Source: Lantana camara (lineage: Eukaryota > Streptophyta > Magnoliopsida > Lamiales > Verbenaceae). From it: DNA of 64,000 nucleotides. The notes beneath the pieces are model-generated. The model saw only the letters and a list, made by a program, of their open reading frames with translations, did not search any database and was not told where the DNA came from. Both the position numbers and the translations under genes were made by a program. Positions 3,280 through 54,454 of this stretch are shown here, piece by piece; position 1 is the first letter of the stretch; every line of letters begins with the position of its first letter. The stretch covers positions 5,281,001 through 5,345,000 of the forward strand of contig CM074865.1 of NCBI GenBank assembly GCA_037501455.1. The letters run 5' to 3'.

Positions 3280-3498
3280 ATGGTGGCGCCACCTGAGGAA
3301 CACGGCGGAGCTGCGGCGGCGGCGGCGTTCAAGCCCAAGAAAGGGAGTGTTTTCCCGGCGCGGAGGAAACTGGTCAAGACTATGGTGTTTCTTTCGATTG
3401 TTGAGTCCATAGTTTCCTGCTTCGGAAAAGGTGACCAGCCAAACAGAGCCTTACCCGCCAAGAAGAAGAAGCAGAGTCTTCTATTTCCGGTCACCTGA
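3280..3498 (+). CDS. Small basic protein, KGSVFP family, copy A
   Basis: This is a 72-residue single-exon gene. The product has an N-terminal APPEEHGG stretch, an alanine run (residues about 11-16), and a basic core reading KPKKGSVFPARRK. An amphipathic or hydrophobic segment (MVFLSIVESIVSCF) follows, then a NRALP motif, a lysine run and a terminal LLFP. I see no signal peptide or transmembrane helix. It is one of five related genes here; copy C at 39033 is the closest, sharing promoter and flanks. The first ATG follows a TATA box at normal plant spacing. Conservation of the core across copies with silent and conservative changes argues that it is coding. I do not recognise the function; the lysine and arginine content suggests binding to a nucleic acid, membrane or acidic partner, which is inference. 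Confidence 0.75.
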   Translation: MVAPPEEHGGAAAAAAFKPKKGSVFPARRKLVKTMVFLSIVESIVSCFGKGDQPNRALPAKKKKQSLLFPVT

Positions 3499-4344
3499 AA
3501 ATACCATGTAATTAATATTTTTATTTCTCATTTTATGACATATTAATTGCTATATGTATTTTTTAAATTAATTGTCACTTTGATTTATTGTAATACATAT
3601 CTTCCACTAAAAGGGCTGTTTGTAAATTAGACCATTATGTAATTTAACTACCATTATTATGACATCATACGTTCATATCGATTATTTCATATTGGATGTT
3701 AGCTGTTTATTTAAAAATTTTGAAGAAAAATTCATATCGAAATGTTTGTATCGTTGGTGTCCCGATTTACAAGTGTTTGTATATATACAATGAAACGTGG
3801 TTCAAAGAAAAATATGATTTAAATATAGAATTAAATTATTTTATATATATATATATAATAACTTGCTACTCAAGGATATGTAAAAGTGGGATCTATATAA
3901 ACTTTGAAGTATAAACTCTGAATTTTGACTGATTGAACGTCAGTTGGACTTCAAACTTACGGTCAAATCTCAAAAGGTACATTAACAATCATATTCAATT
4001 CCTAATTTCCTCGGGTTATAATCTCTAATCTCTTATAATATCCATACTTTTATTCATCTTATTCCAAAATATTTCATGCAATATAATTAAATCGAATATT
4101 AAACCAATTATTAAGCATAATCTTTTTTCTTTAATATGTAGCTATATATATGATTAATAAAATAAAATAATATTTTGAAATTTTCAATGGGAGGCCAAAT
4201 ATATGGGATACGTGGCTAAGACACAGAGGATCCTTGAGGTTTTGTATTTTTGTTGCTTAGCCCACTACCCAATTAATTTAATTAAATGGGTCCCTGCCCA
4301 AAAATATATTATACGAATAAAAGGGAAGAAACTTTATATTGAGT
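3499..4344 (+). other. 3' flank of gene A, duplicated downstream of gene C
   Basis: No gene is visible. The flank aligns in order with 39252-40290 and more loosely with 52461-53650. Shared landmarks are GACTGATTGAACGTCA, CACAGAGGATC and AGCCCACTACCCAATTAAT. The alignment breaks at 4345, where the hAT element begins. Confidence 0.65.
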
Positions 4345-4817
4345 TAGGGCCGTAAATGGATATTCGAAAATTCGATATCCGTCCGTATCCGAATTCGTTT
4401 ACAGAGGATATTATTTGAATTCGTTTCAAGAGGATATTATCCGTATCCGATTATAGACATTCGAATTATAAACGGATAAGGATATGGTAATAAGACATCC
4501 GATCCGTTTCATTATCCGTTATCCGATTTATCCATAATCCGTATCCGATAAATAACATGTTATATTAAAATATATACACACAACTGTGTATGTATGATAG
4601 TCGATAGATTAAGCACATTTATTAAAGAAAAACCTTAGATTATATTAGTAACCATATGTTCACTTCAACATTTATATAGAGATAATATAATTAAAATATA
4701 TTATGTTATTAATAAAAGTATTATATTTTAAATTAATTATATGATAAAATTTATAGTTTCACCATATTTATACATTTACTAAAAAATAAAAATGATATAT
4801 ATATATATATATATATA

Positions 4818-4843
4818 TATGTTATAATAAATTCCTTAGAGTT
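4818..4843 (+). repeat. Left copy of 26-bp terminal direct repeat of the provirus
   Basis: The 26 bases from TATGTTATAATAA to CCTTAGAGTT are identical to 11999-12024. They lie where an (AT)n run of the hAT element ends and viral sequence begins, and mark the left junction. Confidence 0.8.
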
Positions 4844-4874
4844 GGTAGAAGAAGAGCTAGAAACTCTCCTAGCA

Positions 4875-5472: not shown

Positions 5473-6235
5473 GTAGCTACGGCAGTAACAACTACCCTCC
5501 ATCACCAGCTTGTCTACAGGTTGCAGAACCATGGCCTTGATCTACAGGATCTCCTGATGCCTTAATGATTCTTGCAAACTCTGGATCTGATATTCCCACC
5601 ATAGTTCAGGTTCCTAGGCAGATTCCAAGAAAGGAACTGGAGAGATTGATGCCAACCGAGTGGATCACTAACTATGAGTCACTCCAACAATCTCATGAAC
5701 CCATCAGATCTACACACTATGAGTTTCAAAAATGTCAGATGGTAGAACTAAAACCATCTTCAAGCAACCTCAAGAAGAAACCCCATCTTCTTCAAACCCA
5801 ATTTTCAAGCAACTGATGATTCAGCCGGTGATTCCAACAAGCATAGAAACATACCCAATCCTTGGGTATCTTCCAGTAAACTTCTTCTTCCCTGATGGAA
5901 AAGAAGTTTACATTGACAAAGTCGATGGCTATTTCTTATGGGATGCTGATCCATCCATGTGTGACCCAGGTTGTTCTTGCGGATAAGAATCAAACTCCGA
6001 CAACGATGATAAAAGTGAAGCCAGTCGAAGACGAAGACGTAGAAAAGCAAGAAAGAAAAGTCTTCCTTGTAGGACCTTTGAACCAGAGGAACAAGAACCA
6101 GATCCACCATCCTCCGCACAGCCTTTATCTTGTTATGATAAGGCCTTGGCCATCCTTAAAACTGAGAGATAGAAGAGTTGCAGGGAAGAATTTCCTTCAA
6201 GCAATCCACCACCAGCACTACCTTATCCACCTTGC
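5473..6235 (+). pseudogene. Degraded viral region between movement protein and coiled-coil
   Basis: Several short frames in different phases (about 5565-5816, 5732-5986, 5895-6239) overlap with no long open frame. The composition matches the neighbouring viral genes, so I read it as one coding stretch broken by indels. I recognise no domain. A Cys-rich GCSCG-like end near 5970 precedes a stop. Confidence 0.5.
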
Positions 6236-6757
6236 ATGATGCTACACAGCTATGGTAACGACTTTCCACATTTGGAAAGAAAGACAGAAAACAAGGTGAC
6301 AATTCGTCCATACATTCAGACTACTACAGTCCATCCAGACGGAGGAACAACTTCCTCTCTTTCCCAAGGAGAAGAAGTTCTGAACTGGCAAACCACAAAT
6401 GCTAGAGCTCAGAATAAAGCTTTAATTCAACTCGATTCTAAGGTTGATAAGGTTTTATCTCATGTTCAAGATAACAACCAGAAAGTGGATGCTATCACTC
6501 AGGAGCTTGATCAGATGTACAAGAGATTAGTTGCCAGAATTGAACTTCTTGATAAAGAACTCAGGCAACTTATTTCTCTAAGAAAGACAGGTCGAGAATT
6601 TGATCAAAAGGAAGCAGAAATCAGGCAGCTCAAAAAGGATCTCGAATACATGGAACAAGATAGGAAAAGGAGTTCAATTCCTAAACTTCATTTTTTCCCT
6701 ACAGCTGTTTCTTCTTCTCTTTATGATCCGCCTACTTCTCCTGATTACTCAAAATAA
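6236..6757 (+). pseudogene. Pararetrovirus coiled-coil protein remnant
   Basis: This is an open frame of 173 codons. Residues about 60-150 are a long heptad-type coiled coil with spaced leucines, isoleucines and valines, rich in Asp, Glu, Lys and Gln. Position between movement and capsid regions matches the virion-associated or assembly segment of other caulimovirids. It ends in a stop at 6755-6757 followed by further viral coding in another frame. Assignment is by position and coiled-coil character, not by sequence match. Confidence 0.5.
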
Positions 6758-6880
6758 TTTTTCATGGTGTCTGATATTCCTCTTAAACCATCTCTTCCAA
6801 AGTCCAAGCCAAAAAGAGTCACTTCTTCCTCAAAAGAGAAAAACAAAGAAAAGATTGAATAACAACCCTCTTCTACATTA

Positions 6881-7956
6881 ATGATTAGAAACCTTTCTAA
6901 TCTTAATATTCAGGAAGAGTCAGAAAGATCTGAAGATACCTCTTCAGAAGAATCCTTTTCTCAATACACTGAAAGTGATGATGAAATTGCTGATATTTCC
7001 CAGATTCTTATGGCTGATGATCCAGCCTCAGGATCTCATCAAGACCAGCAACCAATTGGAGAGGAAGAAGGAATAATAGAAGATCCTCAAGAATTTCAAT
7101 CTACAGATTCTGGAACTTCTAAACCAACCAATGGTCCTTGGTTCACTTTTGATGATATTCTAAATGGAAAAAGGTGAGAAAGGCTACAATCTTTTGCTGC
7201 ATGGATTGATCTTCAAAGAACCAAAGAATCACATGTTCCTACAATCTTAAAAGAATTTGCTTCCAGATTTACAGGGATATTGAGATAATGGTTCCAATCT
7301 CTGGGAGAATACAGACAAATCCAATTTATCCAGACAACCGCTCCACAGGCACTAGGAGTCATCCACCAAGAATTCATTGGAGATAACACTCTCTACAATA
7401 AAATGGTTCCACAAAGCTATTTTTCCATGAAGTGCTGTTCTTTGAAGCAAGCAGATCTGGATTTTCATTTTAAGAGAATGGTAGAATTTTATTATACCCT
7501 TAATGGGTATAATGATCCGAATCTCAAACATGTGTACATTGCTTCTCTTCCTCAAGAAATCCAGCCTGAACTCCACAGAGCTATAACAACCTCAAGAAGG
7601 GATATTCCTCAAATTTCTCTTGGAGAAATCCATCAGATGGCCATTGCCACGATTGACAAACTCTGTGAACAACAAACCATGTTCAAATCTCTGGCAGAAA
7701 ACAAATCAGTTCTCAAGAAGGCTTGTAAGAAATCTCATCTCAAGATTAAATGCAAATCAAAAACAGAATGCAAGTGTTCTCGTCCAAAGCATAAGAAAAA
7801 AAAGGATTTGTTGAAAAAGGCCTAAAGAGAAAAGGTCGTCTCAGATTCTTCAAAAGGAAGCCTTTTAGAAATAAAAGAACTGATCGATGCTTTGTCTGCA
7901 AAAAGAAAGGACATTTTGCAAAAAATTATCCTCAAAACCGTGAAAAGTCTGCTTGA
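6881..7956 (+). pseudogene. Pararetrovirus capsid and zinc-knuckle region remnant
   Basis: An acidic Ser/Glu-rich segment (6881-7177) leads to a WFTFDDI-type motif typical of capsid entry, then a stop. The capsid core continues through at least one more stop near 7287 into the open frame 7403-7825, which ends in a Lys/Arg-rich tail with a CKSKTECKC-like cluster. In another frame at about 7885-7935 lies a CCHC zinc knuckle in which the last Cys reads Tyr (TAT). The knuckle normally binds the viral RNA. Multiple lesions make it non-functional. Confidence 0.7.
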
Positions 7957-8394
7957 ATGATTTCTCATATTCTACAAAATGTAGAAACAAAACTTGATGA
8001 AACAGATGTGGAATCATTGTTCTCAGAACAAGAAGAACAAAACGAAGAAACCATCTTTGTTATTAAAGATGAAACTACAGACGATGATCCATGTTCCGAT
8101 GCAGAAGATCAAACTCTACCTATCTTTCAGTCAGAGTGCATCAGTCAAGAAATCATTCCTTCTCCTCATTTCCAGATCCATATACTTCCCTCGAAGTATG
8201 ACAGGCCAATCAAAGCAATTGGATTTATGGATGCAGGAGCTATGAAGTCCATGATGAATCCAGGTATTCTACCAAAAGAAGTATGGGCAACCCATTATGA
8301 GTATTTTCAGGCAGCAGATGGTCAGCAATTCAAAACATCGTTGATTACTAAACATCCTATCGGGATACGATTCTTTCCAGATTGTATCGTATGA
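7957..8394 (+). pseudogene. Pararetrovirus aspartic protease remnant
   Basis: This is an open frame of 145 codons: an acidic N-terminal part, then a retropepsin-like fold start. The active-site position reads FMDAGAMKS where D-T/S-G is expected, so the catalytic Asp is kept but its neighbour is Ala. The frame stops at 8392-8394, while protease-like coding appears to continue beyond it. In an intact virus this enzyme processes the polyprotein. Confidence 0.65.
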
Positions 8395-9408
8395 ATGAAA
8401 GTTATTAGAAGCAAGTTACACGGGAAAGATCTTCTCATTGGCTTTGATCTTTACCACAAAGCCAAAAGGTTAACTATTCTTCCTAACGGAATCAAGTATA
8501 AGAGAAATTTTCAACCTTATACTACTCTTTAGAAGATCTATGCCTTGTCAGAAGCTTCAAAGGAGTTTTATGATCTTGTATTCAAACTGAAAAGTTATTG
8601 TGCTGAATCTCATTCGGATTTTTCTCATCCACATCCTTTGTGGAAGAACTCAGATTTTTTCATTCAGCTACCCTTCAAAAAGAATGAAGATGTAAATCCG
8701 ACAAAAGCTACTCATCCAGGGAGGACCCTGATGACGAAAAGCTTGCTATTGCTGAATGTGCTCAACTTCAAGAACTTGGGCTGATTGAACCCACAATATC
8801 CAATTGGGCTTGCCAGACATTCTATGTCAACAAAAGGGCTGAACAAGTAAGGAGAAAAAAGAGACTTGTCATTGATTATAAGCCTCTCAACCATTTTCTT
8901 GCAGATGATAAATTCCCATTACCTCGAGCCCACATGCTCTTTTCCCATATAACCCAGGCCCAAATCTTTTCCAACTTTCATCTCAAAGCTGGGTTTTGGC
9001 AATTGGGTATTGATCCGAAAGACATATACAAAACAACCTTCTGTATACCAAAAGCCCAATACCAATGGAATGTCATGCCTTTCGGTCTTAAAGTGACCCC
9101 ATCACTATTCCAAAAAGTCATGACCAGAATCTTCGAGCCCATCCTTCACAGTGCTTTGATTTACATTGATGACATTCACCTTTTTTCTGAAAATGAGAAA
9201 TTTCATAAAGCACTACTTTCAGATTTTTATCAAATGGTCCAAAAATACGGAATCATGCTCTCAGAAAAGAAAAGTGCGGTTGGACAATCTTCTATTGAGT
9301 TCCTTGGAATGAAGTTCTCAGAAGGAAAATACAAGCCAGGTCCACATATTGCTCAAGAGCTGCTCAAATTTCCAGATGATAATTTGACTACCAAAGAAAT
9401 TTAACAAT
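8395..9408 (+). pseudogene. Pararetrovirus reverse transcriptase remnant
   Basis: Two main open blocks are seen. Bases about 8730-8930 hold the fingers region with a LVIDYKPLN-like motif; 8934-9404 hold the palm with FHLKAGFWQ, MPFGLK and the catalytic YIDD. A connection motif (IEFLGM) follows. There are frameshifts near 8780 and 8930 and a TAA at 9402-9404. The reading then meets the MITE at 9418, which separates this domain from RNase H. Family identity is secure from the motifs. The YIDD box is intact but the gene is not. Confidence 0.85.
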
Positions 9409-9417
9409 TCTTGGGAA

Positions 9418-9703
9418 CGGGGAATCCCAAAAACTCCCCATATGATAAGTCCAATTCCTTTTAGCTCCCCATTTTAAAAAATGATGTATTAAAACTCAAG
9501 AATCGCGTATCTAAAACCCCAAATGATGTATTTGAAATACAAGGAAAAAATCATGAATCTAAATCCCAGAATCAAGTATTTAAATCCCAGAATCGCGTAT
9601 CTAAATCCCAGAATCGCGTATCTAAAACCCCAAATGATGTATTTGAAAATGGGAAGCTAAAAGAAAGTTTTCAAACCCATTGGGAGTTTTCAAAAATTTC
9701 CCC
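9418..9703. mobile_element. 286-bp Mutator-like MITE inserted in the viral polymerase
   Basis: A 9-bp duplication TCTTGGGAA flanks it exactly (9409-9417 and 9704-9712). The ends are imperfect inverted repeats: GGGGAA plus AAAACTCCC near both tips, and CTTTTAGCT-CCCATTTT about 40 bases inside each end. The middle has tandem copies of an AATCGCGTATCTAAA unit, alternating with CCCCAAATGATGTATTTG. It has no coding capacity. The 9-bp duplication and long inverted repeats point to Mutator-type mobilisation after the virus had integrated. Confidence 0.85.
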
Positions 9704-9712
9704 TCTTGGGAA

Positions 9713-10500
9713 TAGTCAATTACATTAAGGATTTTCTTTCTCAATGCTCCAAGGATACAAGTCAGCTTTCCAAAATGCTCAGAAAAGGAGCCCCTACTTG
9801 GGGAAAAGAATAGACGAAAGTTGTCAAGCAATTGAAACAAATCTGCTAAGCCCCTCCACCTTTAAAGATTCCAAACAAAGGTGAAAGAATCCTCCAGACA
9901 GATGCCAGTGACGAATACTGGGGAGCAATCCTGATTGAAAAGGCTGATGGAAAAGAATACTACTATGGACATGCAAGTGGACAGTTCAGTAATGTTGAAA
10001 AACATTATCACACAGTCTAGAAAGAAATCTTGGCTGTCAATAATGGAATCAAGGAATTTGAATTCCATCTCATTGGACATCATTTCACATTGGTTATGGA
10101 CAACTCATCTTTTCCGAAGATCCTAGAATTCAAAAACAAAGAACCTCCAGAATTACAGCTGTTGAGCCTGAAAGACTGGTTTGCCAAATACCAGTTTTCT
10201 GTGAAGCATATAAAAAGAGACCACAACCTCATTCCTGATCTCCTATCCAGACCAAAACAGATCCATCTCATCTCATCAGTTAAACCAATTCCCTTGATAT
10301 ACATGATGGCCTCTTCGTCACAAATACCTGCCATAACAGCTGAGCCAGTTTTTCCAGAATTCCCACCAACAACATTTCCATTGACCAATCCTGATGAAAT
10401 CAAAACCTTTGCCATAAATTACATCTTTTACTATCAGCCATCAGGCAAAATTTCTCCTTGCTTTAGGACTCACTCTAGAGTCAGGAAAATTTTATCCTGA
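9713..10500 (+). pseudogene. Pararetrovirus RNase H remnant
   Basis: Coding resumes right after the MITE with a connection-domain segment. The RNase H1 fold follows: a DAS motif near 9900, YYYGHASGQ, an E-x-L-A-V helix after a stop near 10018, and a MDNSSF strand. A KHIKRDHN and DLLSRP end (to about 10250) is typical of caulimovirid and LTR-element RNase H. Stops and phase changes occur at about 9815, 9850 and 10018. The last open frame runs to 10500. The enzyme would remove template RNA in an intact virus. Confidence 0.8.
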
Positions 10501-11137
10501 TAATCCGTTCTTACCAGTTTTTACTCTGATCGATAGGGTTACTCTTCCAGCAGAAGGATACTGGTATTTCTGGTGTATAGGTATTTCCAACTGGTTTGCT
10601 TTAGAAGTTGATCCAAGGATTCTGCTCAATTCTATCAGAATCAATGATTGTAACTCCAATCTTACAAAATTTCTTTATGGATACTGGACCAGAAAAGAAT
10701 GGATCACATATCTGATAAAGATTGAGAAGAAGAATGAGTATTTAAAGAAACCGCTAACTGTCCTCATAATGCATAGGCCTTATTTCTTTTCACAAGAAAA
10801 ACTCATTCCTCTTGCATATTGTTATGATTTTACCACTACTAATGGTGGTATTGCTAAACATCCTGAGAAAGCTACTGAGTTATACAATCATCTCTGTACC
10901 AAGAACCATGTCCCTGCCATAACTTACATGTCGCCTTTCAAAAAGAAGTCTTATTGCACCTCAAATGTCTTCTTAACAGAAGATTTCTCTGATGGAGATC
11001 CTTATGCCAAATCTATGATCCAAAGTCTCAAAAAAACAACTTTACAAGGTGAAGAAATTCCAGATACTACTCAAGAATATCTAGAGGGAGAACCAGATGA
11101 TTTCCGCAGCTACACTTATCCAGCAGGATACAGCTAA
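10501..11137 (+). pseudogene. Pararetrovirus C-terminal region, unidentified
   Basis: Beyond RNase H the viral composition continues in broken frames, ending in an open frame of 122 codons (10769-11137). That frame has an acidic tail and finishes PAGYS. I do not recognise a domain. Its position after RNase H and before the promoter makes it either the end of a single polyprotein or a separate last gene. Confidence 0.45.
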
Positions 11138-13828: not shown

Positions 13829-16598
13829 TCAACGTTTATTTATTGACAGAAAGACAACCGTAGGTACACATAACAGTGAACTACAATCAACGACCACCAC
13901 GTCTTGAAGTACTTGCTCTCGCACGAGCTTGTGCACGATCCATCTCCATAGGAAATCGAGTTGTACGGCCCCGACCGGCATTCCCCTCCTCCCGCCCCGT
14001 CTCCTTGGCCTTTCTTCGTTGGTATTGACTAGGATTAGAGAAGCCTCTGGCCAGTAATCTTCATCCAATATCGGGGCGAAACCTCCCGCGTAAGTTTGAA
14101 GGTATCGTTCGATTTCGTAAAACCAGGCTACGAAGTTTGATGGCGGAATACCAAATGAAATGGCTGCCTTAATAACATGAGAACAAGGGATGCCGTGTCG
14201 CTGCCAGAAACCACATGAACATGTCTTACTGTTCAATTGGACGATATGTTTTCTCGAGCGTCCACCTGAGGCCGGATTATGGGTAATTACTTCAGCCCTG
14301 TATTCTCGTTGGTCAAACAGGCTTACCTCATGGAGGCCACAGTTCTCGATATTCATCTCGAAAATTGCCCAAGCATAATCCGTCCAGGCGTGGCAGAGTG
14401 ACTTTGTGTGCATGCCACTTTTCTGTCTGTCGACGAAGTATTGTGCCGTGCGTTTTAATGTGGCTTCAACGATTGGCACGATCGGCAACCGACGAATATT
14501 TCTAAGAACACCGTTGAAGCATTCCGACAAGTTGGTCGTCATCGTTCCGTACCGCATGCCACCATCGTGTGAGGCAGCCCACATTTCCGGTTCCAACCCG
14601 TCAAACCAGGTTATTGCTCGCAAGTCACTTGTAGCTATTCTCTTCATTATCCTGTCGTAGGTTACTTGCTCCATTGCATCCCCGGCTTCCCAACATAGAT
14701 CTTTCAAGCGTTGATCGTGACAGAACTTGTAAAAGTTGGAGCATATGTGTCGCAGGCAGTATCTGTGGCACCCAGCTGGTTCGTTGAATTCTGGAGTAGA
14801 TCGGACCCCGGATATGATCGCACGGTGTCTATCGGAGATTAGACAGACACGTCGCTCTGGTTGACAGAAGTTCTTCGCAAGGTGAAACAGAAAGAATTTC
14901 CACGATACGTCAGTCTCTTCATCCACCAAGGCATACGCCAATGGAAGTACGTTCTGATTTGCATCTACTCCCACCGCAAGCAACAGTTTGTATCGATATT
15001 TGGTGTACAAATGCGTACCATCGACACTGATAACCGGACGCATATGTCGGAGTGCATCAATGCATGGCTTGAATGCCCAGAAGACGTGTTGCAGCATGCA
15101 TGTATTTGGATCTGGAGACCTGAACTGTCTATTATGCAACCACTCGACGACAGTACCTATGATACAATAACGAGGCTTGTAAAATGGGAATATGTTCTAT
15201 GAAATAATTTTCGAAATCTATGTTTCAGAGGGTACCTGGATTCCATCTTTGAACTGCACTGAAGAACCGAGGTAATTTGGGCACAGAAGTCTCCCACGTA
15301 CCGTACTCTATGGCTCGTGCCTTTTTCAGTCCTTGCCATGCCTTCGAATATGAGACATTAATTGCGTATGTTGCGTGAACCTGAGTTTGTACGTTGCTTA
15401 CTTTGTACCCATAATCATTTTTAACGAAAGGCAGGATTAAGCTTGCTATGAATGCAGAACTCAAATTTGCATGATCGTTAGTGTTCTGGTTAGGTAGACA
15501 GTAATGCCGAGGCGACAGTTTCGTAACTCTCCAAAATCCCTTGTTTGCCTTTGCGCTGGCACGAAGTTTCCAGTTGCAATTTATGTCTTTACATTTGATT
15601 TTCCACATACGTGGTCTGCTCTCCACGACATTATATTCGCGCTTACTCCATTTAATGCAGTGATCCTTAACAGCTGCAATCACATGTGCTTTGTCTTTGA
15701 ACGTCATACCCTCCGATAATACACCCGTGTTGCGATTGTAGCATAGTTCTCCCCGGACCGTTGGCACATCGACGGAGTCAGCAACAACCTCCGGGAACAT
15801 AGCTGCCAAGTATGGACTCACAATTCTAAGAACCAGGGTTCCTGTTTCGGCCGCCACATTAGGAGTGGATGGCTGGTGCAAAGCTTCATGCATCTCATTT
15901 ATTAAGTTATCCTCCTCTTGTTCCACCTGGGTGAGGTCACCTTCTTCTTCCGAAGCAAGAAGCTCTGCAACCTCATCGTCCTCTTCTTCTTCCGAACTAG
16001 CAAGCTCTTCAGCCATAAATGAGTTACTTGTTGGATCCGGGAACTGTGAAGGCCTCAGTGATGGTGGTTGCAATTGTTGGGCGTCGACCTCAGGCATGAA
16101 AGTACTGTCGTCAGGTAATATCTCCGGGTAGTACGGAATATTCAGATCCATCGGAGGTTGAGAAGACGAAGCACCGTTGTGCTCATCAACCGTCATGGTG
16201 TTGAGACCTTGTGTTATCTCTTCTACGTAATTGAAGTTCTCATGTGAGAGCATTGAAGTGTAAGTTCCCATTTCTGGCCCATACTCCGATTGAACGTATA
16301 TGGGGACACATTCCAGACCTCTCGCCGGGTCTACGAAGTACCATAGATCTGTGTCGTTGGAAATTTCAAAGAGTTTTTCCATCGGAGGGTCTCGTGAGAT
16401 TAGACAAGCAGCTAATATTTTTAGTTTGTATAGCTCTTCATGGAGGTTGAGGCAAGCATATACTTCGGAAAGAAAATCAGAGAACGAGGAAGAGCGTGAA
16501 ATACTTAACAAACAAACGGGTGACATGGAGCAATGTATGGTGTAATTTGCCTCTCTAACATTACCACCATGATGGACCAGAAAGCCTACTGTTTCCAT
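13829..16598 (-). CDS. Mutator-like (MuDR family) transposase, two exons
   Basis: Exon 1 spans 16598-15236 and exon 2 15156-13829, joined by a 79-base GT-AG intron (15157-15235). Splicing restores one frame of 896 residues. The N-terminus is PB1-like and followed by an acidic Glu/Ser stretch. Next is the MuDR zinc-binding domain (FKDKAHVIAAVKDHC and CNWKLRAS motifs, about residues 285-370). The MULE DDE domain follows, with VDGTHL and ISDRHRAI supplying the two Asp and LSECFNG the Glu. A SWIM finger (CSCGFWQRHGIPCSH) closes the core. The enzyme would cut and insert elements bearing matching ends. The final ~70 residues look atypical. The overlapping frame ending at 13887 reads a more typical basic tail (RFPMEMDR), suggesting a one-base loss near 14045. 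Confidence 0.88.
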
Positions 16599-31241: not shown

Positions 31242-31339
31242 TGACGTATGCATTATTACGTCATGTTCCAGCCATTCATATGATGCCACGTGTACAACTT
31301 CTAGACCTCTTTCATTAATAGTTAAAGTACCTATTTAAG
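31242..31339 (+). promoter_or_regulatory. Putative promoter of small gene B
   Basis: An as-1-like pair (TGACG at 31242-31246, ACGTCA at 31258-31263) and a CACGTG G-box (31287-31292) precede TATTTAAG (31332-31339), about 60 bases before the ATG at 31400. The as-1-like pair also survives before deleted copies F and G. Confidence 0.55.
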
Positions 31340-31399: not shown

Positions 31400-31618
31400 A
31401 TGGTGGCGGAAACAGAGGACCACGGCGGAGCACCGGCGGCGGTGGCGGCGTTCCCGCCGTTCAAGGCGAAGAAAGGGAGCGTTTTTCCGGCGAGGAGGAA
31501 GTTGGTGAAGACAATGATCTTTCATTCGATTGTTTCATTTTTCTTCAAGAAAGCTGATCAGCCAAACAGAGCCTTACCGATCAAGAAGAAGAAGAAAGCT
31601 CTATTTCCACTCCCTTGA
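31400..31618 (+). CDS. Small basic protein, KGSVFP family, copy B
   Basis: This is a 72-residue single-exon gene. Its order of parts matches copy A: an EDHGG start, an Ala/Pro stretch, KAKKGSVFPARRK, a hydrophobic segment (IFHSIVSFFF), a DQPNRALP motif, lysines and a terminal LFPLP. It differs from A, C, D and E in the N-terminus (VAETE in place of APPE) and in the middle, so it is a distinct B-type paralogue. Remnants of B-type genes stand before copies D and E too. No known domain, signal peptide or clear membrane helix is visible. Function unknown. Confidence 0.75.
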   Translation: MVAETEDHGGAPAAVAAFPPFKAKKGSVFPARRKLVKTMIFHSIVSFFFKKADQPNRALPIKKKKKALFPLP

Positions 31619-38773: not shown

Positions 38774-38963
38774 TGACGTTGGATCAGGTCTGCATCTTAC
38801 AACGTTGGATTACAGCTACTCTCGTATTGCCACGTGGTATTTACTGTTTACAAAAACTTTGTTCCCAAGTCTACTTTATTTTAATCCTACGAAGTAAATA
38901 AAAGATAACACGGCTCTGTGTGTCTCTCTCTCTCACTATCACTCTCACTCACTCTATATTAAA
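38774..38963 (+). promoter_or_regulatory. Putative promoter of small gene C
   Basis: TGACG (38774-38778), a CACGTG G-box (38831-38836) and a TATATTAAA box (38955-38963) precede the ATG at 39033. The G-box is intact here but altered (CCACGCGG) in copy A. Confidence 0.55.
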
Positions 38964-39032: not shown

Positions 39033-39251
39033 ATGGTGGCGCCACCTGAGGAACACGGCGGAGCTGCGGCGGTTTTCAAGCCCAAGAAAGGGAGTGTTTT
39101 TCCGGCGCGGAGGAGACTGGTGAAGACTATGGTGTTTCTTTCGATTGTTGAGTCCGTACTGTCGTGCTTCGGAAAAGGTGATCAGCCAAACAGAGCCTTA
39201 CCCGCCAAGAACAAGAACAAGAAGAAGAGTCTTCTATTTCCCGACCCATGA
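39033..39251 (+). CDS. Small basic protein, KGSVFP family, copy C
   Basis: This 72-residue single-exon gene is the nearest relative of copy A. It has the same MVAPPEEHGG start, a shorter alanine run, the KPKKGSVFPARRRLVKTMVF core, SCFGKGDQPNRALPAK, a Lys/Asn run and terminal LLFPDP. An upstream in-frame alternative start exists at 39009 but is not ATG; the ATG at 39033 aligns with the starts of the other copies. Changes relative to A are mostly conservative. Function unknown. Confidence 0.75.
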   Translation: MVAPPEEHGGAAAVFKPKKGSVFPARRRLVKTMVFLSIVESVLSCFGKGDQPNRALPAKNKNKKKSLLFPDP

Positions 39252-41770
39252 AAATATCATGTAATTAACATTTCATTTCTTATTTTATAACTTATTGTTA
39301 TATGTATTTTTTAAAAATTAATTGTCACTTTTGATTTATTGTTATATACATGTATCATCTTCCACTGTTTTTAATATGTGTAAACCATCCGAACTTAGGG
39401 ATGTTTGTAAATTAGACCATTATGTAATTTATCGATCATTGTTATGACATCTACATTCATATCGATTATTTCATATTTATATCTAGGTGTTTGTATTGTT
39501 GGTGTCCCGATTGATGAGTGTTTGTATTCGTTAAAATATTATATATGATTTGATGAAAAATATGATTTAAATATAGAATTAAATTATTATATATATATAT
39601 ATATATAACTTGCTACTTAAGGATGTATAAAAGTGGTTGCAAGTATACAGTATAAACTCTGAATTTTGAGTTTTGACTGATTGAACGTCACTTGGACTTT
39701 CAAACTTACGGTCAAAAGGTACACAACCAATCATATTCAATGCTTCGGTTTATGATCTTTTATAATATCCACACTTTTATTCATCTTATTCCATAAATAT
39801 TTCATGCAATATATAGATAGGTTAATCTATTATCGTTAGAAAGTGCTAGTTATGGTGGATGTATAAGTCGTTAATCATGTGATATTAGGTTATTTTTGGA
39901 TCATCTAATCACCGGGCCGTGTTAAAATTGCTATTAAAATTAGTCAACCTCTATTACGAATCAAGGAGAGTGAGTGTGATTAGGTGAAACTACAATTCAT
40001 TGAAAGTAAATGTAACTCAATTTATCGAAATATTTTTCATAAATACAAGATTATTTGTCGAATACTTATGTCTATATAAAACTTAATTTTAACTAACAAT
40101 CCGGATAAAGATAAACTCTAATAATAAAATGAAATTATATTTTAAAATTTTGTGTAGAAGGTTGAGAGGCCAAGTGTCTAAGATACAGAGGATCGTTGAG
40201 ATTTTGCTTTAGCCCACTACCCAATTAATTTAATAAAATGGGTCCTATCCCAAAAATATATATACGAATAAAAGGCAGGAAACTTTATTTTGACGCTGAC
40301 TGTCAAAGTCTTGAGAAACAAAAATGGTAGACAGATCAAAGCCAGCTAATTTTGGGTGATTCCATTCATTAAAATTACTACTTTTCTCATTCAATGTTAC
40401 CTTATTTTATGTAAACATATAGTTTCTATACCTACACATAATATATAGAAAAATTCTATCCTCAGTTTGGTTTGACCAAACCAATATAACGAGAGGACGA
40501 GTATTTTATAAGTATCTTGTGGTTGGTGCAAAATTTAAGGAGAATGACAAATCAAATAACAAGTGTAATACACTTACCTTTTAATCGGGTTTGAGATAGA
40601 ATGTTTCTAATATATAGATATAGTGTTTATTAAACATGTTTATGTCCCTCTAACAATTTTATTTTGTTTCTTTAATCTCTTCTATTACGGGTCGGGCCGA
40701 TGTCATATAAGCAGGTTTCTAATTGTCTATATAGACGTCCTATCAAAAATTAGTTGTTTATTGCTAACATGTTTTACGGAGGAAAAGAAATAAACCACGT
40801 GTTAGTTATAAATGTTTGACGATTCTCACCTTATCAACTAACTTTCTAGGTAAAATGGATCGAACACATACATTCACAAGTTATTAGAGTTTAGTTATAC
40901 AAATCATGTGTTAGTTAAATATTTGATAATTCTCATATCATCGCCTAACTTTTAAAATAATTTAAGTCGAACACATATTTTCACATTTTCAATTATTCGA
41001 ACAATAGCTCACCGATTAAACTAAAATAGTGTCCAACATTTGAAAAAAAAAACAAAACAAAACAAAAAACCAAAAAAAAAAAAAAAAACTAGGTTTTTGA
41101 CCTCTCGATGCGGGGAGAGGCATGCAATTTCTAGTATAATTTTCTGTCTTGATAGGTATAGTAATGGGAAAATTACACTTTTCGTTCCATTAGACTAACT
41201 CGATACCACATTTGGTTCTATATAATTTTTTGTTTACACATTGAGTCCTATAAAAATAATTTTGAACACATTGAACCATAACCGTTAACTTTTGACCTAT
41301 GATGCACGGACACTTCTAAAAATATTATTTTACCGTATCGTGTCGTGTCGGACACTCGTGTCTGACATTCCTCATATGGGAAATTTAAGAAAAAATCCGT
41401 GTCTCCATATCCGTATCGTATCTTGTTCGTATCGCCGTGCGCCCGTGTCTATACATCATAACTTTTGACTCTAAAATTGAAAAAAAAAAAAAAAAACCTT
41501 AATGTTAAAATAAAAGTGGAATCTAAAATAAAATTAATGTATTTACTGAAATTTATACATCCAAAGTATACAATACGTAAAATTGAGTGGCGGCCCATAT
41601 ATTTGTCAGATGCATTTGTCGGAGGCCCGAAGTGACAGAATTCACTATTCAGACAAACTCAATTAGAGACCCACGTGTCACTAATATTTCGTACTATGCG
41701 CGTGCTTGGTAATTAAAATGTGGGCCCCTTCCACCTTAACTAATCCCAAAACAAAACTTAGTTCTCATTC
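39252..41770 (+). other. Intergenic DNA between genes C and Y1
   Basis: Bases 39252-40380 match the gene A flank and form an approximate empty site for the hAT and Mutator-like insertions near 40280-40335. Further on are short microsatellites (AAAAC near 41041), a half Mutator-like terminal repeat near 41167-41280 (GGGAAAATTACACTTTTCG) and a CGTGTCGTGTCGGACACTCG-type dispersed repeat near 41335. No gene is supported. Confidence 0.5.
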
Positions 41771-41827: not shown

Positions 41828-42061
41828 ATGAGCACATTTGGATATTTCAGTACTGCAGCCGCTCAAGAAAACCCAACCGCCGCTGCTGCCGGCGGCGGTG
41901 GGGGAGGCGGACGAGGTGGGCAGACGAATACTGCAGCGGCAGCGGCGGCGGCGGCGGCGGCGGAAGCAGGGAAGGGGCGGGTGCCGCCGAAGAGAGGAGG
42001 CGTGATGAAAAGAATCGTGGCGGATTTTACCGGAAAGGGGCTTCTAAGTTCTAACTCTTGA
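41828..42061 (+). CDS. Small Ala/Gly-rich basic protein, Y family, copy Y1
   Basis: This 77-residue single-exon gene starts MSTFGYFSTA, then has a glycine run, GGQTNT, a run of ten alanines, and a basic C-terminal block KGRVPPKRGGVMKRIVADFTGK. A TATTTAAT box lies about 50 bases upstream in a promoter stretch (TTCTCATTCTATCACC) shared with copy Y2. The block K-G-x-V-x-P-x-R-x-x-x-x-K is spaced as in the KGSVFP genes next to it. No signal peptide or known domain is visible. The homopolymer runs arise from GCG and GGC triplets, which may vary in length. Function unknown. Confidence 0.75.
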   Translation: MSTFGYFSTAAAQENPTAAAAGGGGGGGRGGQTNTAAAAAAAAAAEAGKGRVPPKRGGVMKRIVADFTGKGLLSSNS

Positions 42062-45794: not shown

Positions 45795-47220
45795 AAAAAA
45801 GATATTTCAAGTTAATATTTATTTTAAGAATAATATTATTTGATTTCCTTGAAACCTGTGCAGCTCTTTTTAAGTTGATTGTTCTTGGAAGTGACGAGGG
45901 AATAATTTGTTTCAGTGAGGATTTCAGAGATGAAGACCTGCAACACTTTTTGTTGATCAATTCAAAACCTTGGATGTTTAACAATAAATAATCAAAAAGT
46001 CACGATTAAGGAAGGTATATTTGAAATTTGAATATATGCACAAGAAGACAGAAACATATGTTGAAAGCGACTTTTCTTCTTGAACAAAAAAAAAAAAAAA
46101 AAAAACTCTCATTACTAATAGGCTAAAGATAGAAAGTTGGGTCGGACCTAAAACTCTCTTTACCAATAAAAACTACATACTTAAGGCTCAAATACAAGAT
46201 CTCTTGCTAAAATAGCGCATCACAAAATCGTTAAGTTACACAACACCACTCGATATATAGTTTTCATTCTCATGTTATTTTTCATTTATCATTATTAGAA
46301 TTTTTCATAAATAAAGAATGGGCATCGGCCACGTGATTTCTATGCTTGATTTCCCTTTTAACATTTATCAGAATTGACTCGGTAAAGCTTCTTGATAATT
46401 GGGCAACCTTTTCAACTAGTATCACTTATATTCTTTTTTTTTTTTTTTGAATGAATTTATTCTTATAATTCTTAATGAATATATTGAGATGATTCTCGTT
46501 CCCCTTGGGGAATTCAAATCATTAATGATAATGTTAGTAACAATATATGTTCATTACAAGAACCATAAAAGCAAATTGGCCATATATAAGACTTGCTAAA
46601 GATTATGACAAAACATTTTTCATTTATTACAAAAATGATTGCCGTATTATTATTAGTAGAAAATAGTATTTAATTAATTAGTTACTATTATTATTCACTG
46701 GTATACTAAATATCACTTGGTCTAAGGGGATGAGATGTCAGAACCCCTCAAACAAGATTAGGTTCAAATGTTAACCTTGTAAATGAAGTTGGATTTGTAA
46801 ATGAAGGGGATGAGAGGATACTGCTATGTACGAATTATTATTAAAAAAAAAAAAAAAAATGAAGCGGAAAACTAAATTAAAAACCCACTTTTTGTATTAA
46901 CCAAAGACGAAACTATAGGACGGATTAGTTGGGACTTGGGATTACCCAGCCCTAAATATTTTTTTCAAGAAAAAAAAACTATGGTTTTAGGTATGCCCAA
47001 ACTCTAATCTCTTACTCAAAATTCTGATTACAATCAATAATCGCCAGTAATAATTAATAATTTATTATAAAATAGATATTTTTGGAAATTAATATTTTGT
47101 GATAATATTAAATTTAATGTACCATTTGTCAAAACTTTGAACTTACTATTTATTTTTCTCACCACCTCAGTTTCCTTATAATAATTGTAAGAATATCACA
47201 ATTAAAAATTCAGTTGAGGA
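45795..47220. other. Intergenic DNA and upstream flank of deleted copy F
   Basis: Bases about 46380-46600 match the gene B upstream flank at 29830-30560. At about 46705-46860 a stretch with tRNA-like boxes (TGGTCTAAGGGGATGAG, AGGTTCAAATG) ends in 17 A, as in a SINE, but no target duplication is clear. No gene is supported. Confidence 0.45.
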
Positions 47221-47301
47221 TGACGTAATCTAGTATACGTCATATTGTAGTCATCCCGGATGAAGAAGGAGAAGAGGAGTCCACTTTTTCCACTCCCATG
47301 A
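47221..47301 (+). pseudogene. Deleted B-type small gene, copy F
   Basis: The as-1-like pair (TGACG at 47221, ACGTCA at 47237) is followed directly by the last codons of a B-type gene. A 13-codon frame (47260-47301) ends SPLFPLP, the same terminus as gene B. G-box, TATA box and almost all coding sequence are gone. The 3' flank continues as in gene B. One internal deletion explains it. Confidence 0.7.
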
Positions 47302-47409
47302 AAATCATTACTAGTATTTCCATTTTAATTTTTTTATAATTTTTTTTTTTATTTTCTTAATAACTTGTAAAAATACATTATCTTTCGTTTGTATTTGTAC
47401 TACTATGAT

Positions 47410-49053: not shown

Positions 49054-49451
49054 GCTATTAGTAATTATTCATAAGAATATGACACTAAAACCAATTAGGG
49101 ATTATACCATCACGTCATGATAACCAAATCCAAAGTGCAAATTTGTGACGTGCGTAGATCCTATTCCCATATTCCTGCTGTAAAAAAGGTGGGGGAAAAA
49201 AAAAAAAAAAAAGATCACGTTCCCATCTTACAACATGGGATTACAGCCATTCAAGTATTGCCACGTGGGCTTCTAGAAGTACTTTGGTTCCAAGTCTACT
49301 TATTTTAATCCCATATAATACAAGGAATCTCTCTCTCTCTCTCTCTTCCTCTATATATATTAAATAATTCAATTCCCGCAGTGCGATATTAATCAATTCG
49401 TTACTCGTTAGCATCAGTACTACCTGAATTGGAGAGAGAAGGAACAAGACA

Positions 49452-49604
49452 ATGGTGGCGCCACCTGAGGATCACGGCGGAGCAGCGGCGGTGTACAAGG
49501 CGAAGGAAGGGAGTGTTTCTCCGGTGCGGAGGAAACGGGTGAAGACTATGATGTTTCGTCGGATTGTTGATTCCATAGTCTCCTGCTTCGAGAAGAAGAA
49601 GTAG
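49452..49604 (+). pseudogene. Small basic protein, KGSVFP family, truncated copy D
   Basis: This frame has 50 codons and then TAG (49602-49604). The start MVAPPEDHGGAAA matches the family. The core reads KAKEGSVSPVRRKRVKTMMF, with charge changes (K to E, F to S, L to R). The segment encoding GDQPNRALP is deleted in frame. Beyond the TAG the same frame still reads KSLLFPDS and a TGA, so the loss of the tail rests on a single codon. TGACG (49146-49150), G-box (49262-49267) and TATA box (about 49352-49364) remain. It may be a recent pseudogene or a shortened active copy. Confidence 0.65.
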
Positions 49605-50360
49605 AAGAGTCTTCTATTTCCCGACTCCTGAAAATATCACGTAGTCAATATTTTCGTTTCTTATTTTATATGACATATTGTTATATGTATTTTCTAGAGT
49701 AATTGTCACTTTGATGTATTGTGTTATAAATATATATATACATGATTTAGCCAGGGATAAACAGAGACCTGGTCTACTCGATATACTGAGGCTACATTTT
49801 GCTTCGACGATCGATCTATTGGAGTTTGCATCGGTGGAAAAACAAATTGAAAATTAGAAATTAAAATATACGTCCACATTATTTTAGAAAAAAAAAATAT
49901 ATATATGTATAACATTAGACGTATTTTAAAATTGAAATGCTTCCGGAGAAGTATGCATACTAGAGATTGAGAAATATACAACTCTCAACATACACGCAGA
50001 TGATACTTTAGTTAAACGAAAGAATTCAGAGAAATGGAAATCAATATTTCATTTTAAAAACCAAAATTAGGAACACTTATCGACTAAAGATAAATGATTG
50101 AAAAAGAAAAATAATCGAAATTGATACACAACGAAAACAAAAGAAATTTAGAGATGAAGATATAATATAAAAAGGAACTAGAAATGATTCCAAGTAAAAC
50201 TTGGAGATGAAGGGATGATATAAAAAGGAACTATAAATGATTCTAAGCACCCGATTCTTCATTTCTTGTTTTGGCATTTGTTGCATTAGTGAGGTTTTGC
50301 TGTAGAAAATAGGAGCCGGGAGGAATTTTTTAAGCGTTTTAGCGAGGGCATTTTAGTAAA
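49605..50360 (+). other. 3' flank of copy D
   Basis: The first ~130 bases match the flanks of genes A and C. The rest is AT-rich, with a tandem near-repeat near 50155-50240 (GATATAAAAAGGAACTA-AAATGATTC). No gene is seen. Confidence 0.45.
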
Positions 50361-50449
50361 TTCAGTCGAGGATGATGTAATCTAGTATACGTCATATTGT
50401 AGTCATCATTCCTATAATGATACATGAAAACAAAACTAAATTACTACTA
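50361..50449 (+). pseudogene. Deleted B-type small gene, copy G (promoter remnant)
   Basis: GATGATGTAATCTAGTATAC and GTCATATTGTAGTCATC match copy F, including the point where F loses its promoter and coding part. The coding tail is not preserved. A MITE at 50450 and then B-type 3' flank (50684-50730) follow. Confidence 0.6.
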
Positions 50450-50683
50450 GGGGAAATTACATCTACACCCCCTGAGGTTTGGCCTAATTACAAATCAGTC
50501 CCTCTTATTTCGTTTATTACATATTAACCCCTAAAAATACTGTTTCAATTACATTTTAACCCCTAAAGAGGGACTGATTTGTAATTAAAACAGTGTTTTT
50601 AGGGGTTGATATGTAATAAATAAAAAAGGAGGGACTGATTCGTAATTAGGACAAACCTCAGGGGGTGTAGATGTAATTTGCCC
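50450..50683. mobile_element. Mutator-like MITE (234 bp)
   Basis: The ends GGGGAAATTACATCTACACC and the inverse GGGCAAATTACATCTACACC continue inverted for most of the element (CCTGAGGTTTG, AATCAGTCCCTC). Flanks TTACTACTA and TTACTAATA are an 8/9 match. A related copy lies at the window start. Confidence 0.8.
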
Positions 50684-50692
50684 TTACTAATA

Positions 50693-51960
50693 TTTCCATT
50701 TTTTGTTTTTTTGATTTTCTTAATAGAAATGAAATATAATGTATTTTTTGTTTTGCATTCATTTGACTGTATTAATTGTGCTTGCTTTTGGTGCTTTAAC
50801 TTATCAAAATCACTCAATTCTGTTCTAATTGTGACACCAATAATATTTTTATTTTTTATTTTTTTTGTGTGTGACACCAATATATGTGAATGTTACAAAA
50901 ATCTGTTTTCAACTATTGACTAATAACTACCAATTGCGAAAGAAATTTCTATCAACTATGAATAATAGCTACCAATTGCAAAGAAATTTTTACTAATTAA
51001 ATAAATTTAAGTAACGGTATCACAATAAGAAATAATTGTTATTATTTTCATTGATATATATGGTTGGCTATGATTATATATTAAGCAAAAGATACTTCGA
51101 TGATTCCTAGTTTGAATAGAATCAGATTCCAAATAAAAATTTGCTTTTATCTATTTTCATCAAGATAAAAAGGATAATATATAGAAACTCGATTTTGAGG
51201 TTTAATATATTGTAACAGCTAGCTTATAAATCACGATTTCTAATCATTTGTAAATGATTTAATTTTAGATATAGATAATTATTCTTAAGATCATAAGAAT
51301 TAGGGGTGTACGTGGTAGGGTATATGAGCGACCCGAAGTATATGGGTTTATAAAAATAAAAATCATAAATACATAATTATTTTTTCAAATCGAACTTTTC
51401 AAGTTGAGCGGGTGTGGCTATATAGCGAGTGGATTGATGGTTTGACGGATTTTATAAATATATTTTAATAAAAATAATAATTTATACTCATAATTTTAAC
51501 AAAATAACCGAAAAGATATAAAGAATATGAGAATTTATTCTAATTTAATAGCATATTCCAACACTAATATATAATAATTTCAAAGTCGATGAATATATTT
51601 GTATAACATACATAACAATTATTATTATTTTTTTAGGCTAAACATAACAATTATATTGTGTATCATATATTTATATAACTATTATTATAAATAAAAAATA
51701 TAAATATATGTATATAGCAGTCGGGTTGCAGTTAGGAAAATTTAAATTCCTACTCAAAAATAGCAGATTGTAATATTTTTCAACCTTGATTTTTTTTTTT
51801 TAAATTTCAACCGATGATTTTTTGACGATTTGATGCGGTTTGAACGAATTTGACGGATTATACAGATTTATGTACACCAAGGATAGGAGTCATATGACAC
51901 TAGAGACGATTGGGGAATATACCATCAAGATACCAATCAAATCCATGTGAATCAATGGTG
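50693..51960 (+). other. Intergenic DNA before gene E
   Basis: The first bases match the B-type 3' flank. The rest is AT-rich with a GGGTTTAT/GCGGGT-type repeat near 51300-51870 that may be another decayed hAT MITE. No gene is seen. Confidence 0.4.
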
Positions 51961-51970
51961 TGACTTAGGC

Positions 51971-52154
51971 CACGTGGCCATGTACAACCGTCGGATATCG
52001 CCACGTCGCATATCAAAAACTTTGTTCCCATGTCTACCTAATTTAATCCTATTAAGCAAAAGGCCAAAAAAAAAAATAAATAATAATAATAATAACAAAA
52101 TAAGATCAAGTAAAAAAGCAACACGACTCTCTCTAATTCTCTCTGTATATTAAA
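51971..52154 (+). promoter_or_regulatory. Putative promoter of small gene E
   Basis: A CACGTG G-box (51971-51976) and a TATATTAAA box (about 52146-52154) precede the ATG at 52224. The TGACG of the other copies reads TGACT here. Confidence 0.5.
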
Positions 52155-52223
52155 TAGTTCAGTTAGCGACTTAGCGCAGTTACACATTAACTAATTCGTT
52201 AGAGAGAGAGAAAGAACAGGAAA

Positions 52224-52460
52224 ATGGCGGCGCCACCTGAGGATCACGGCGGAGCTGCGGCGGCGGCGGCGGTGTTCAAGCCGAAGAAAGGGAGTGTTTT
52301 TCCGGCGAGGAGGAAACTGGTGAAGACTTTGATGTTTCATGCGATGATTAAATCGATAATCTCGTGCTTCGGAAAAGGTGATTGGCCAAACAGAGCCTTA
52401 CCCAAGAAGAAGAAGAAGAAGAAGAAGAAGAAAAAGAGTCTTCTGTTTCCAGTCCCCTGA
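52224..52460 (+). CDS. Small basic protein, KGSVFP family, copy E
   Basis: This is a 78-residue single-exon gene. The layout matches copies A and C: MAAPPEDHGG, an alanine run, FKPKKGSVFPARRK, a segment LMFHAMIKSIISCF, GKGD-PNRALP, then eleven lysines in a row and a terminal LLFPVP. The lysine run is coded by AAG triplets (about 52408-52440) and is a microsatellite expansion relative to the 3-5 lysines elsewhere. The final LLFP is kept in frame. Function unknown. Confidence 0.75.
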   Translation: MAAPPEDHGGAAAAAAVFKPKKGSVFPARRKLVKTLMFHAMIKSIISCFGKGDWPNRALPKKKKKKKKKKKSLLFPVP

Positions 52461-54180
52461 AAATCTTTAATTAATATTTAATACTCTCATTTCTTATTTT
52501 TTTACGCATTGTTGTATTGTATTTTTTGAATTAATTGTCATTTTGATTATTTCAGAACAGATATGAATGTATCTTCCCCTGTTTTTAGTATGGGTAATTA
52601 CAACAAGAAAAATATTCTGTCAGCATGTTTGAGTTGTTTGTGTCATGTTTAACTTTTTTTTTTTGTTTAATACATCAAAATGGGATTCGATAATCCATTA
52701 ACCATTTGGACTAATTCTTATTCGCTTGTGTCATATTTAACTTGTTTGTTTATAGTGATTCGAGCCATATTTAACTTGTTTGTTTATAGTGATTCGAGCA
52801 ATTATATTGAATAACGTATAGTACATGCATTGAGAAATTTCAACGAAAAATTCATTTCAACCTGTCTGTGTTGTTCCTGTTCTGATCGGCGTATCTACTA
52901 GAAAAAGAAAAAAAAAAGTTAAAAAGTTGTATAATTTAATAGCAAATATGATTTAGATATACAGTTAAATTATTTTCAAAATGTAAATATTTGTGTACCT
53001 TGCTAATTAAGGGTATATATAAGTGCCATCAATACGAACTCTCTGAATTAATTTGACTGATTGAAAGTCACTTAAAAGACTAAAAGCCGGCATACTTTTG
53101 CTGAGATTATCGAGAATATGGATAAGTTTGCAAAAATGAGACATGATATCCCAGCGGACTTCATGGTGTGGGAGGCACCACCGGACGGCTTCTAATGGGG
53201 CTTTCCTTGTTTTCGTGTTGAGTCGACTATCGCATTTTTTGAAAAAAAAGAAAAGAAAAGAAAGTCACTTGGACTTCAAACTTATGGTCAAAGACTCAAA
53301 AGTTATATGAACAATTTTATTCAATTCTTCGGGACTAGCTCTTAGATTGTTAATACTTTTATTCATCTTTTAACTGTCATATTTTATGCAATATGGTTTA
53401 ATCTAATATTGTTGACAAATAATTTGACTATTAAACCAGTTATTGATAAATCTTTCCTCCCAATAAATGCTATCATTAATAATTTAATTTACATCCAATT
53501 CCTGTAGAAAGTTGAGAGGCCAATTAATATCTGGGATACGTGTCAAGATCCATAGTGGCCGGCCCCTTTTCTTGCTTATTATTATTCCGCTACCTAATTT
53601 ATTTAATAATAAGGGTCCCAAAAGTTTGTGAATAAAAATGAAAGCAACTTTACATAGACACTCTTTTGTCAAACAGTTGAGGGAAAAAATATAAAAATTG
53701 GTAGACAGAAAGCCAGCTAATTTTGGATGATTCATCTTAATTACTACTTCTCTTTATCAATTTTGGATCTTTCATTAAAGTAATTTCAAATGTACCTTAT
53801 TTTATGTATGTATGTATATGGTTTTTATACATACACATTATATAAATGTAGTGTTTATCAAGCATATCTATGTCCCTCTAACCATTTTCTTTTGTTTTTT
53901 CAGCTAACTCTTATGTTATGGGTCCGAACTGTTCTCATTAAAAGCAGGTTTCTGCTCATCTATATAGATGCCCTGTCAAAATTAACGGTTTATCTATTTA
54001 AACTAAAATAGTATCGAACAAATAAGCTAGGTTTTTAACCTCTCATTGCGGGAGAGCCCACGCAATTTGTAGTATAATTTTATGTCTTGATAGGTATATA
54101 ACAACATTGGAATGTAAAATAAATAAATACATGTGGGCCCTTTCCACCATAACTAATCCCACAAACAAAATTTAGTTCTC
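52461..54180 (+). other. Intergenic DNA between genes E and Y2
   Basis: It matches in order, with gaps, the flanks of A and C (GACTGATTGAAAGTCACTT, GAGAGGCCAA, TAGACAGAAAGCCAGC). A LINE fragment is inserted at 53074-53259. A CATTGCGGGAGAGCC stretch near 54045 also occurs near 41107. No gene is seen. Confidence 0.5.
53074..53259 (+). mobile_element. Very short 5'-truncated LINE copy
   Basis: An 11-bp duplication GAAAGTCACTT flanks it exactly (53063-53073 and 53260-53270). Copies A and C lack it at this point. It encodes an L1-type RNase H end (FMVWEAPPDGF then stop), similar to IWEDPPALF in the LINE at 27.6 kb, and ends in an A/G-rich tail. Confidence 0.8.
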
Positions 54181-54244
54181 ATTCTATCACCTATTTAATA
54201 TCCCATTTAATTTCCTGCTCACTACCATAGCCAAATAATTAAAA

Positions 54245-54454
54245 ATGAGTACATTTGGATATTTCAATTCTGCAAACGGAGCCACAGCCACTCAAGAAAA
54301 CGCCCGCGGCTGCGGCTGCGGCGGAGGCGAAAGAGGCGGGCGGACAAATACTGCGGCAGCGGTGGCGGACGGAGGGAAGGGGCAGCTGCCGCCGATGAGA
54401 GGAGGTGTGATGAAAAGAATCGTGGTGGATTTCACCGGAAAAAGGGGCTTCTAA
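54245..54454 (+). CDS. Small Ala/Gly-rich basic protein, Y family, copy Y2
   Basis: This 69-residue single-exon gene begins MSTFGYFNSA, followed by a Gly-rich stretch with two added cysteines (RGCGCGGG), GGRTNTAA, and a basic end KGQLPPMRGGVMKRIVVDFTGK. The alanine and glycine runs are shorter than in Y1. The promoter (TTCTCATTCTATCACC, TATTTAAT) and the first 5' bases match Y1. Preservation of the C-terminal block and frame, with indels only in multiples of three, supports coding. Function unknown. Confidence 0.75.
   Translation: MSTFGYFNSANGATATQENARGCGCGGGERGGRTNTAAAVADGGKGQLPPMRGGVMKRIVVDFTGKRGF

What the first reader, a model, noticed from the sequence alone, without database searches (positions are those of the whole stretch)
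3280..54454. Array of tiny basic-protein genes in a repeating B-A(-Y) unit
Seven coding copies (A, B, C, D, E, Y1, Y2) and two deleted copies (F, G) lie on one strand over 51 kb. B-type and A-type copies alternate: (off-window, A), (B, C, Y1), (F, D), (G, E, Y2). Flanks align in the same order in each unit. This suggests four rounds of duplication of a gene pair or triplet, with loss of the B gene in two units. I know no described family with this layout; a plant-specific small-protein cluster is the best candidate here for an undescribed system.
Basis: partly seen in the sequence, partly recalled or inferred. Interest (0 to 1): 0.8.

Follow-up and report, generated by a model that had tools for sequence, protein, structure and literature searches.

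The report
Tandem array of tiny plant proteins
A stretch of plant DNA holds several copies, some intact and some broken, of genes for very small positively charged proteins; the main type is shared by many flowering plants and its function is unknown.

Summary
Five A/B-type frames (A-E) and two Y-type frames lie on the + strand of plant DNA; flanks align in the stated unit order, with few hits in reversed controls. F and G are real remnants of B-type copies. A/C and A/B show purifying selection (dN/dS 0.25, 0.29); other pairs are not significant or not tested.

The novelty claim needs correcting. A profile search found 132 relatives (120 listed); each listed one bearing an organism name is a eudicot, none has a Pfam domain, and nine species carry two members on one contig under neighbouring locus tags. 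So such clusters are widespread, though unnamed in the papers searched. Y is not shown to be related.

A G-box (CACGTG) lies within 300 bp upstream of 5 of 7 frames. Best reading: a locally amplified cluster of G-box-controlled genes for small, probably nuclear, disordered one-helix adaptor proteins. Function is inferred, not shown.

The parts
1..162 (+). Unit 1: right part of a MITE-like palindrome and B-type 3' UTR (off-window B0, state unknown)
   Evidence: 17-151 matches 50588-50726; 105-162 matches B's 3' UTR 31634-31694
3280..3498 (+). A: 72-aa basic protein, A-type, intact
   Evidence: 86% identical to C; aligned G-box position reads CACGCG
31286..31292 (+). G-box upstream of B (CCACGTG)
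31400..31618 (+). B: 72-aa basic protein, B-type, intact
   Evidence: dN/dS A/B 0.29
38830..38837 (+). G-box upstream of C (CCACGTGG)
39033..39251 (+). C: 72-aa basic protein, A-type, intact
41671..41677 (+). G-box upstream of Y1
41828..42061 (+). Y1: 77-aa Ala/Gly-rich basic protein with GKGRVPPKRGGVMKRIVADFTGK; separate family
47198..47389 (+). F: B-type remnant (5' element joined to last codons and 3' UTR)
49261..49268 (+). G-box upstream of D (CCACGTGG)
49452..49604 (+). D: A-type copy truncated by an in-frame stop (50 aa); probably decaying
   Evidence: S at the core F position and R at the core L position, each 0 of 124 domains in relatives
50358..50740 (+). G: B-type remnant without coding sequence, with a MITE-like palindrome in its 3' UTR
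51970..51977 (+). G-box upstream of E (CCACGTGG)
52224..52460 (+). E: 78-aa basic protein, A-type, intact, expanded Lys run
54245..54454 (+). Y2: 69-aa Y-type protein; no CACGTG within 300 bp upstream

Best explanation
This is a local tandem array of intronless genes for a eudicot-wide, unnamed family of 65-120 aa basic proteins, made by repeated duplication of a B-A(-Y) block of several kb, with later loss of B in two blocks and decay of D (shown by sequence). The intact copies are probably expressed genes under a shared G-box promoter, hence likely responsive to stress, light or a hormone through bZIP or bHLH factors (inferred). The proteins have no recognisable enzyme domain: a basic core (FKPKKGSVFPx[KR]3LVKTM) runs into one helix of about 17 residues, followed by a variable linker and in many members a C-terminal [VI][FY]P tail. 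I think they act inside the cell, most likely in the nucleus, as short adaptor or inhibitor proteins that bind one conserved partner through the core and helix (inferred; not tested). Extra copies would mainly raise dose and diversify regulation.
For: 132 relatives at E<=0.1, 120 listed. In 124 domains of those 120 proteins the core P and V are unchanged in 124 of 124, K of VK in 122, M in 119. dN/dS A/C 0.25 (Fisher p 0.007) and A/B 0.29 (p 0.0004). Gaps among A, C and E are multiples of three in 6 of 6, against 10 of 61 in flanks. CACGTG in 5 of 7 upstream stretches; 6.1% of all 300-bp stretches have one. A PSORT-type 'pat7' nuclear-signal pattern (rule recalled) in 116 of 120 relatives against 23.6 expected in shuffles. 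AlphaFold2: one helix 30-46, block 31-40 pLDDT 85, the rest low. [VIL][FY]P in the tail of 29 of 89 against 2.5% in shuffles. Tree: the five window copies group (94/90), A+C+D+E 95/90, A+C 95/84.
Against: No transcript, localisation or partner could be examined. dN/dS of C/E (0.49, p 0.065) and Y1/Y2 (0.51, p 0.08) is not significant, and D pairs run 0.45-0.81. The G-box probability treats copies as independent although their promoters share descent; A and Y2 lack the site. The nuclear-signal pattern is just the basic core, so it is not independent evidence. Over all six A, B, C, E pairs only 15 of 23 coding gaps are multiples of three, the others all lying in alignments with B. The model is weak (mean pLDDT 63.7, pTM 0.30). 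Y may have nothing to do with A/B.
Confidence: 0.5

Rival explanations
1. Membrane-bound variant: the basic core and hydrophobic helix attach the protein to acidic membranes, where it works as a peripheral regulator.
For: Core helix is hydrophobic on average with basic residues at its start.
Against: The hydrophobic moment is no higher than in shuffles for the three helices tested (fractions 0.60, 0.72, 0.67), and the helix holds charged residues.
Confidence: 0.2
2. Docking-peptide variant: the [KR]-x-L-V core is a cyclin-type (RxL) or MAPK-type docking site, so the proteins are small stress-induced inhibitors or competitors of cell-cycle or MAP kinases.
For: [KR]xL plus hydrophobic in 100 of 120 relatives against 30.3 expected in shuffles; motif rules recalled, from no call.
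Against: The pattern follows from the conserved core and is not independent; 19 of 124 domains have S at the L position; no homology to known inhibitors was found (Pfam 0 families for A, B and C).
Confidence: 0.12
3. Relic array: most copies are non-functional leftovers, and selection acted on the ancestor or on one or two copies only.
For: B lost twice (F, G), D truncated, A has lost its G-box, C/E and Y1/Y2 not significantly constrained.
Against: A, B, C and E keep full frames, the core and the C-terminal LFP motif; A/C and A/B are under constraint.
Confidence: 0.15

Closest known systems
Unnamed eudicot family (hypothetical proteins, e.g. Castilleja CASFOL_021846, Rosa RchiOBHm_Chr6g0297031, Prunus POPTR_0002s07700g-like)
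   Same: Same core, size and charge; two members under neighbouring tags in nine species
   Different: Window copies have an Ala-rich N-terminus, a PNRALP element and long Lys runs; B-A-Y block order not examined elsewhere
DVL/ROTUNDIFOLIA small plant proteins (recalled)
   Same: Small, basic, plant-specific, multi-copy
   Different: No Pfam match for A, B or C
SIAMESE-type CDK inhibitors (recalled)
   Same: Small, stress-induced, short-motif proteins in plants
   Different: No Pfam match for A, B or C; core motif differs as far as I recall

Membership tests
Unnamed eudicot KPKKGSVFP-LVKTM family | Core FKPKKGSVFPx[KR]3LVKTM | tested here: met
   A, B, C, E score 74.6-89.2 bits with a profile that includes them; D 51.7
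Unnamed eudicot KPKKGSVFP-LVKTM family | Y1 and Y2 belong to it | tested here: inconclusive
   Y1 4.0 bits, reached by 3 of 3000 shuffles; its core alone by 25 of 3000; Y2 -1.8, reached by 498 of 3000; other window ORFs score up to 8.0. hhalign P 0.031, probability 1.6%
Unnamed eudicot KPKKGSVFP-LVKTM family | C-terminal [VI][FY]P tail | tested here: met
   LFP near the end of A, B, C, E; strict pattern in 29 of 89 relatives. D's stop comes before it
DVL/ROTUNDIFOLIA | DVL domain in Pfam | tested here: not met
   A, B, C: 0 families at E<=10; E and Y1: one sub-threshold unrelated match each
SIAMESE-type CDK inhibitors | Cyclin/CDK binding | not testable with these tools
   needs a binding assay

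The most novel reading that the evidence does not exclude
A widespread but undescribed class of eudicot regulators: G-box-driven, tandemly amplified micro-adaptors that carry a fixed basic core plus helix and a C-terminal [VI][FY]P motif, bind one conserved partner, and evolve by copy-number change in local arrays.
Probability: 0.3. Interest if true: 0.6.

Novelty: new member of a known kind. Interest (0 to 1): 0.42.

Why it matters
A short core kept nearly unchanged across eudicots, in proteins without a Pfam domain and absent under its motif strings from the papers searched, points to an important contact that nobody appears to have named. Tandem copies explain why single knock-outs could be silent. 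The array also gives a clear case of birth, loss and decay of very small genes, a class that annotation tends to miss.

Tried and rejected
Y as a distant A/B member: suggestive register in hhalign but not upheld by shuffles for Y2; left open. Amphipathic membrane helix: moment not above shuffles. An extra coding copy upstream of A and C (2200-2760 / 37742-38235): homologous but broken in all frames, so intergenic. Solved structures: none of 177635 distinct sequences at E<=1. Arabidopsis AT4G36500/AT2G18210 as relatives: recalled lead; 6 papers listed, none read, relation not checked, dropped. Motif strings and locus names in papers: none found; topical searches gave 0 papers and one bacterial paper, seen in the listing only. 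The plasmid collection gave one weak match (E 0.8). Own-genome copy count: not obtained.

A correction made on checking: my first count of 'never seen' residues in D used a pattern that forbade S at one of the two positions; it was redone with a profile built without the window's rows and the conclusion stood.

Full report
What is there. The window is plant DNA with many transposon-like frames. Five related frames (A, B, C, D, E) and two of another type (Y1, Y2) lie on the + strand. Protein identity by tblastn: A/C 86%, A/E 75%, A/B 67%, A/D 60%; Y1/Y2 62%. Sizes and charge: 50-78 aa, pI 10.0-10.9.

Units. Local alignments run in the same order in each block: A block with C block over 2200-4342 and 37742-40293; C-Y1 block with E-Y2 block over 37879-42178 and 50761-54581; B-C block with F-D block. 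Controls with the subject reversed gave 1, 6 and 1 hits against 6, 16 and 22; the best control hit had 50 bits, the best real one 984. Most unit 1 to unit 3/4 hits outside the genes are weak. F is a B-type copy of which only the last codons and the 3' UTR remain; G keeps only a B-type 5' element and a 3'UTR-like stretch with a palindromic insert between. The 50-bp 5' element of F and G is 96% identical, far more than the rest of the blocks; I cannot explain this. The window's first bases carry a similar palindrome at the same place of a B-type 3' UTR, although A and C, not A and E, are sisters; independent insertion or recombination between blocks would be needed.

Selection. Nei-Gojobori dN/dS: A/C 0.25, A/B 0.29, C/B 0.35, A/E 0.37, C/E 0.49, E/B 0.51, Y1/Y2 0.51; pairs with D 0.45-0.81. 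Fisher tests on rounded counts for five of the pairs: A/C p 0.007, A/B p 0.0004, C/E p 0.065, Y1/Y2 p 0.08, C/D p 0.44. D has a TAG in its Lys run, with the lost LFP tail still readable behind it, an S in place of the core F and an R in place of the core L; neither occurs in 124 domains of 120 relatives.

Family. A single-sequence search gave 8 proteins; a profile search gave 132 at E<=0.1, of which 120 are listed and only the 7985 best candidates were scored. Every listed row that carries an organism name is a eudicot, from Lamiales to Brassicaceae; names are of the hypothetical or uncharacterised kind; many rows have no name. Pfam is blank for all 120 listed. Two members on one contig with neighbouring locus tags occur in Rosa chinensis, Prunus campanulata, Fragaria x ananassa, Handroanthus, Camellia fascicularis, Punica, Quillaja, Populus x canadensis and Salix dunnii (nine species; adjacency is read from tag numbers and contig lengths, not from coordinates). 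The 120 proteins hold 124 core domains, so a few carry two. The window's five copies form one group (94/90) within Lamiales-like relatives in a tree of 29 rows with 13 of 26 inner branches open, so this array grew locally.

Y. One search with Y1 gave no relative at E<=0.1 among 114 candidates. Its GKGRVPPKRGGVMKRIV core recalls the A/B core in register (hhalign P 0.031, probability 1.6%), but the shuffle test supports this only for Y1 and not for Y2, and unrelated window ORFs score as high.

Control. CACGTG stands at -113 (B), -202 (C), -190 (D), -253 (E) and -156 (Y1); A has CACGCG at the aligned place and Y2 has none. 6.1% of 300-bp stretches in the window hold the site, giving P 1.6e-5 for 5 of 7 if copies were independent, which they are not. 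CCACGTG occurs 10 times (palindromic sites counted on both strands) against 2.06 expected. That G-boxes are bound by bZIP and bHLH factors is general knowledge.

Protein. AlphaFold2 on 43 aligned rows: one helix 30-46, mean pLDDT 63.7, pTM 0.30. No solved relative. Nuclear-signal pattern in 116 of 120. I commit to a nuclear micro-adaptor as the most likely mechanism, as inference.

Verdict. It is a lineage-grown cluster of a widespread uncharacterised family rather than an undescribed system.

Noticed in passing
42757-42987 (-): 76-aa precursor with a signal-peptide-like start and LPKKMPTPSSTPSKGTHS, resembling the IDA EPIP motif FGYLPKGVPIPPSAPSKRHNSFVNSLPH (passage of PMC6971993); a possible IDA-LIKE/PIP peptide gene right behind Y1.
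   Followed up: partly
23034-23504 (-): 156-aa protein with several EF hands (Pfam), calmodulin-like.
   Followed up: partly
5565-11137 (+): Broken frames that look like an endogenous pararetrovirus (recalled resemblance, ORF list only).
   Followed up: no
13829-16598 (-), 25275-27677 (+), 61019-63180 (+): Frames resembling a MULE transposase, a LINE reverse transcriptase/RNase H and a Helitron helicase (recalled resemblance).
   Followed up: no
47206-47255 and 50358-50407: 50-bp 5' element of F and G is 96% identical, much more than the blocks around it.
   Followed up: no
1-151 and 50438-50726: Same MITE-like palindrome at the same place of B-type 3' UTRs in units 1 and 4, at odds with A and C being sisters.
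   Followed up: partly
32561-33209 and 36902-37550: 649-bp direct repeats 97% identical, about 4.3 kb apart, between B and C: probably LTRs of a young retrotransposon that split unit 2.
   Followed up: no
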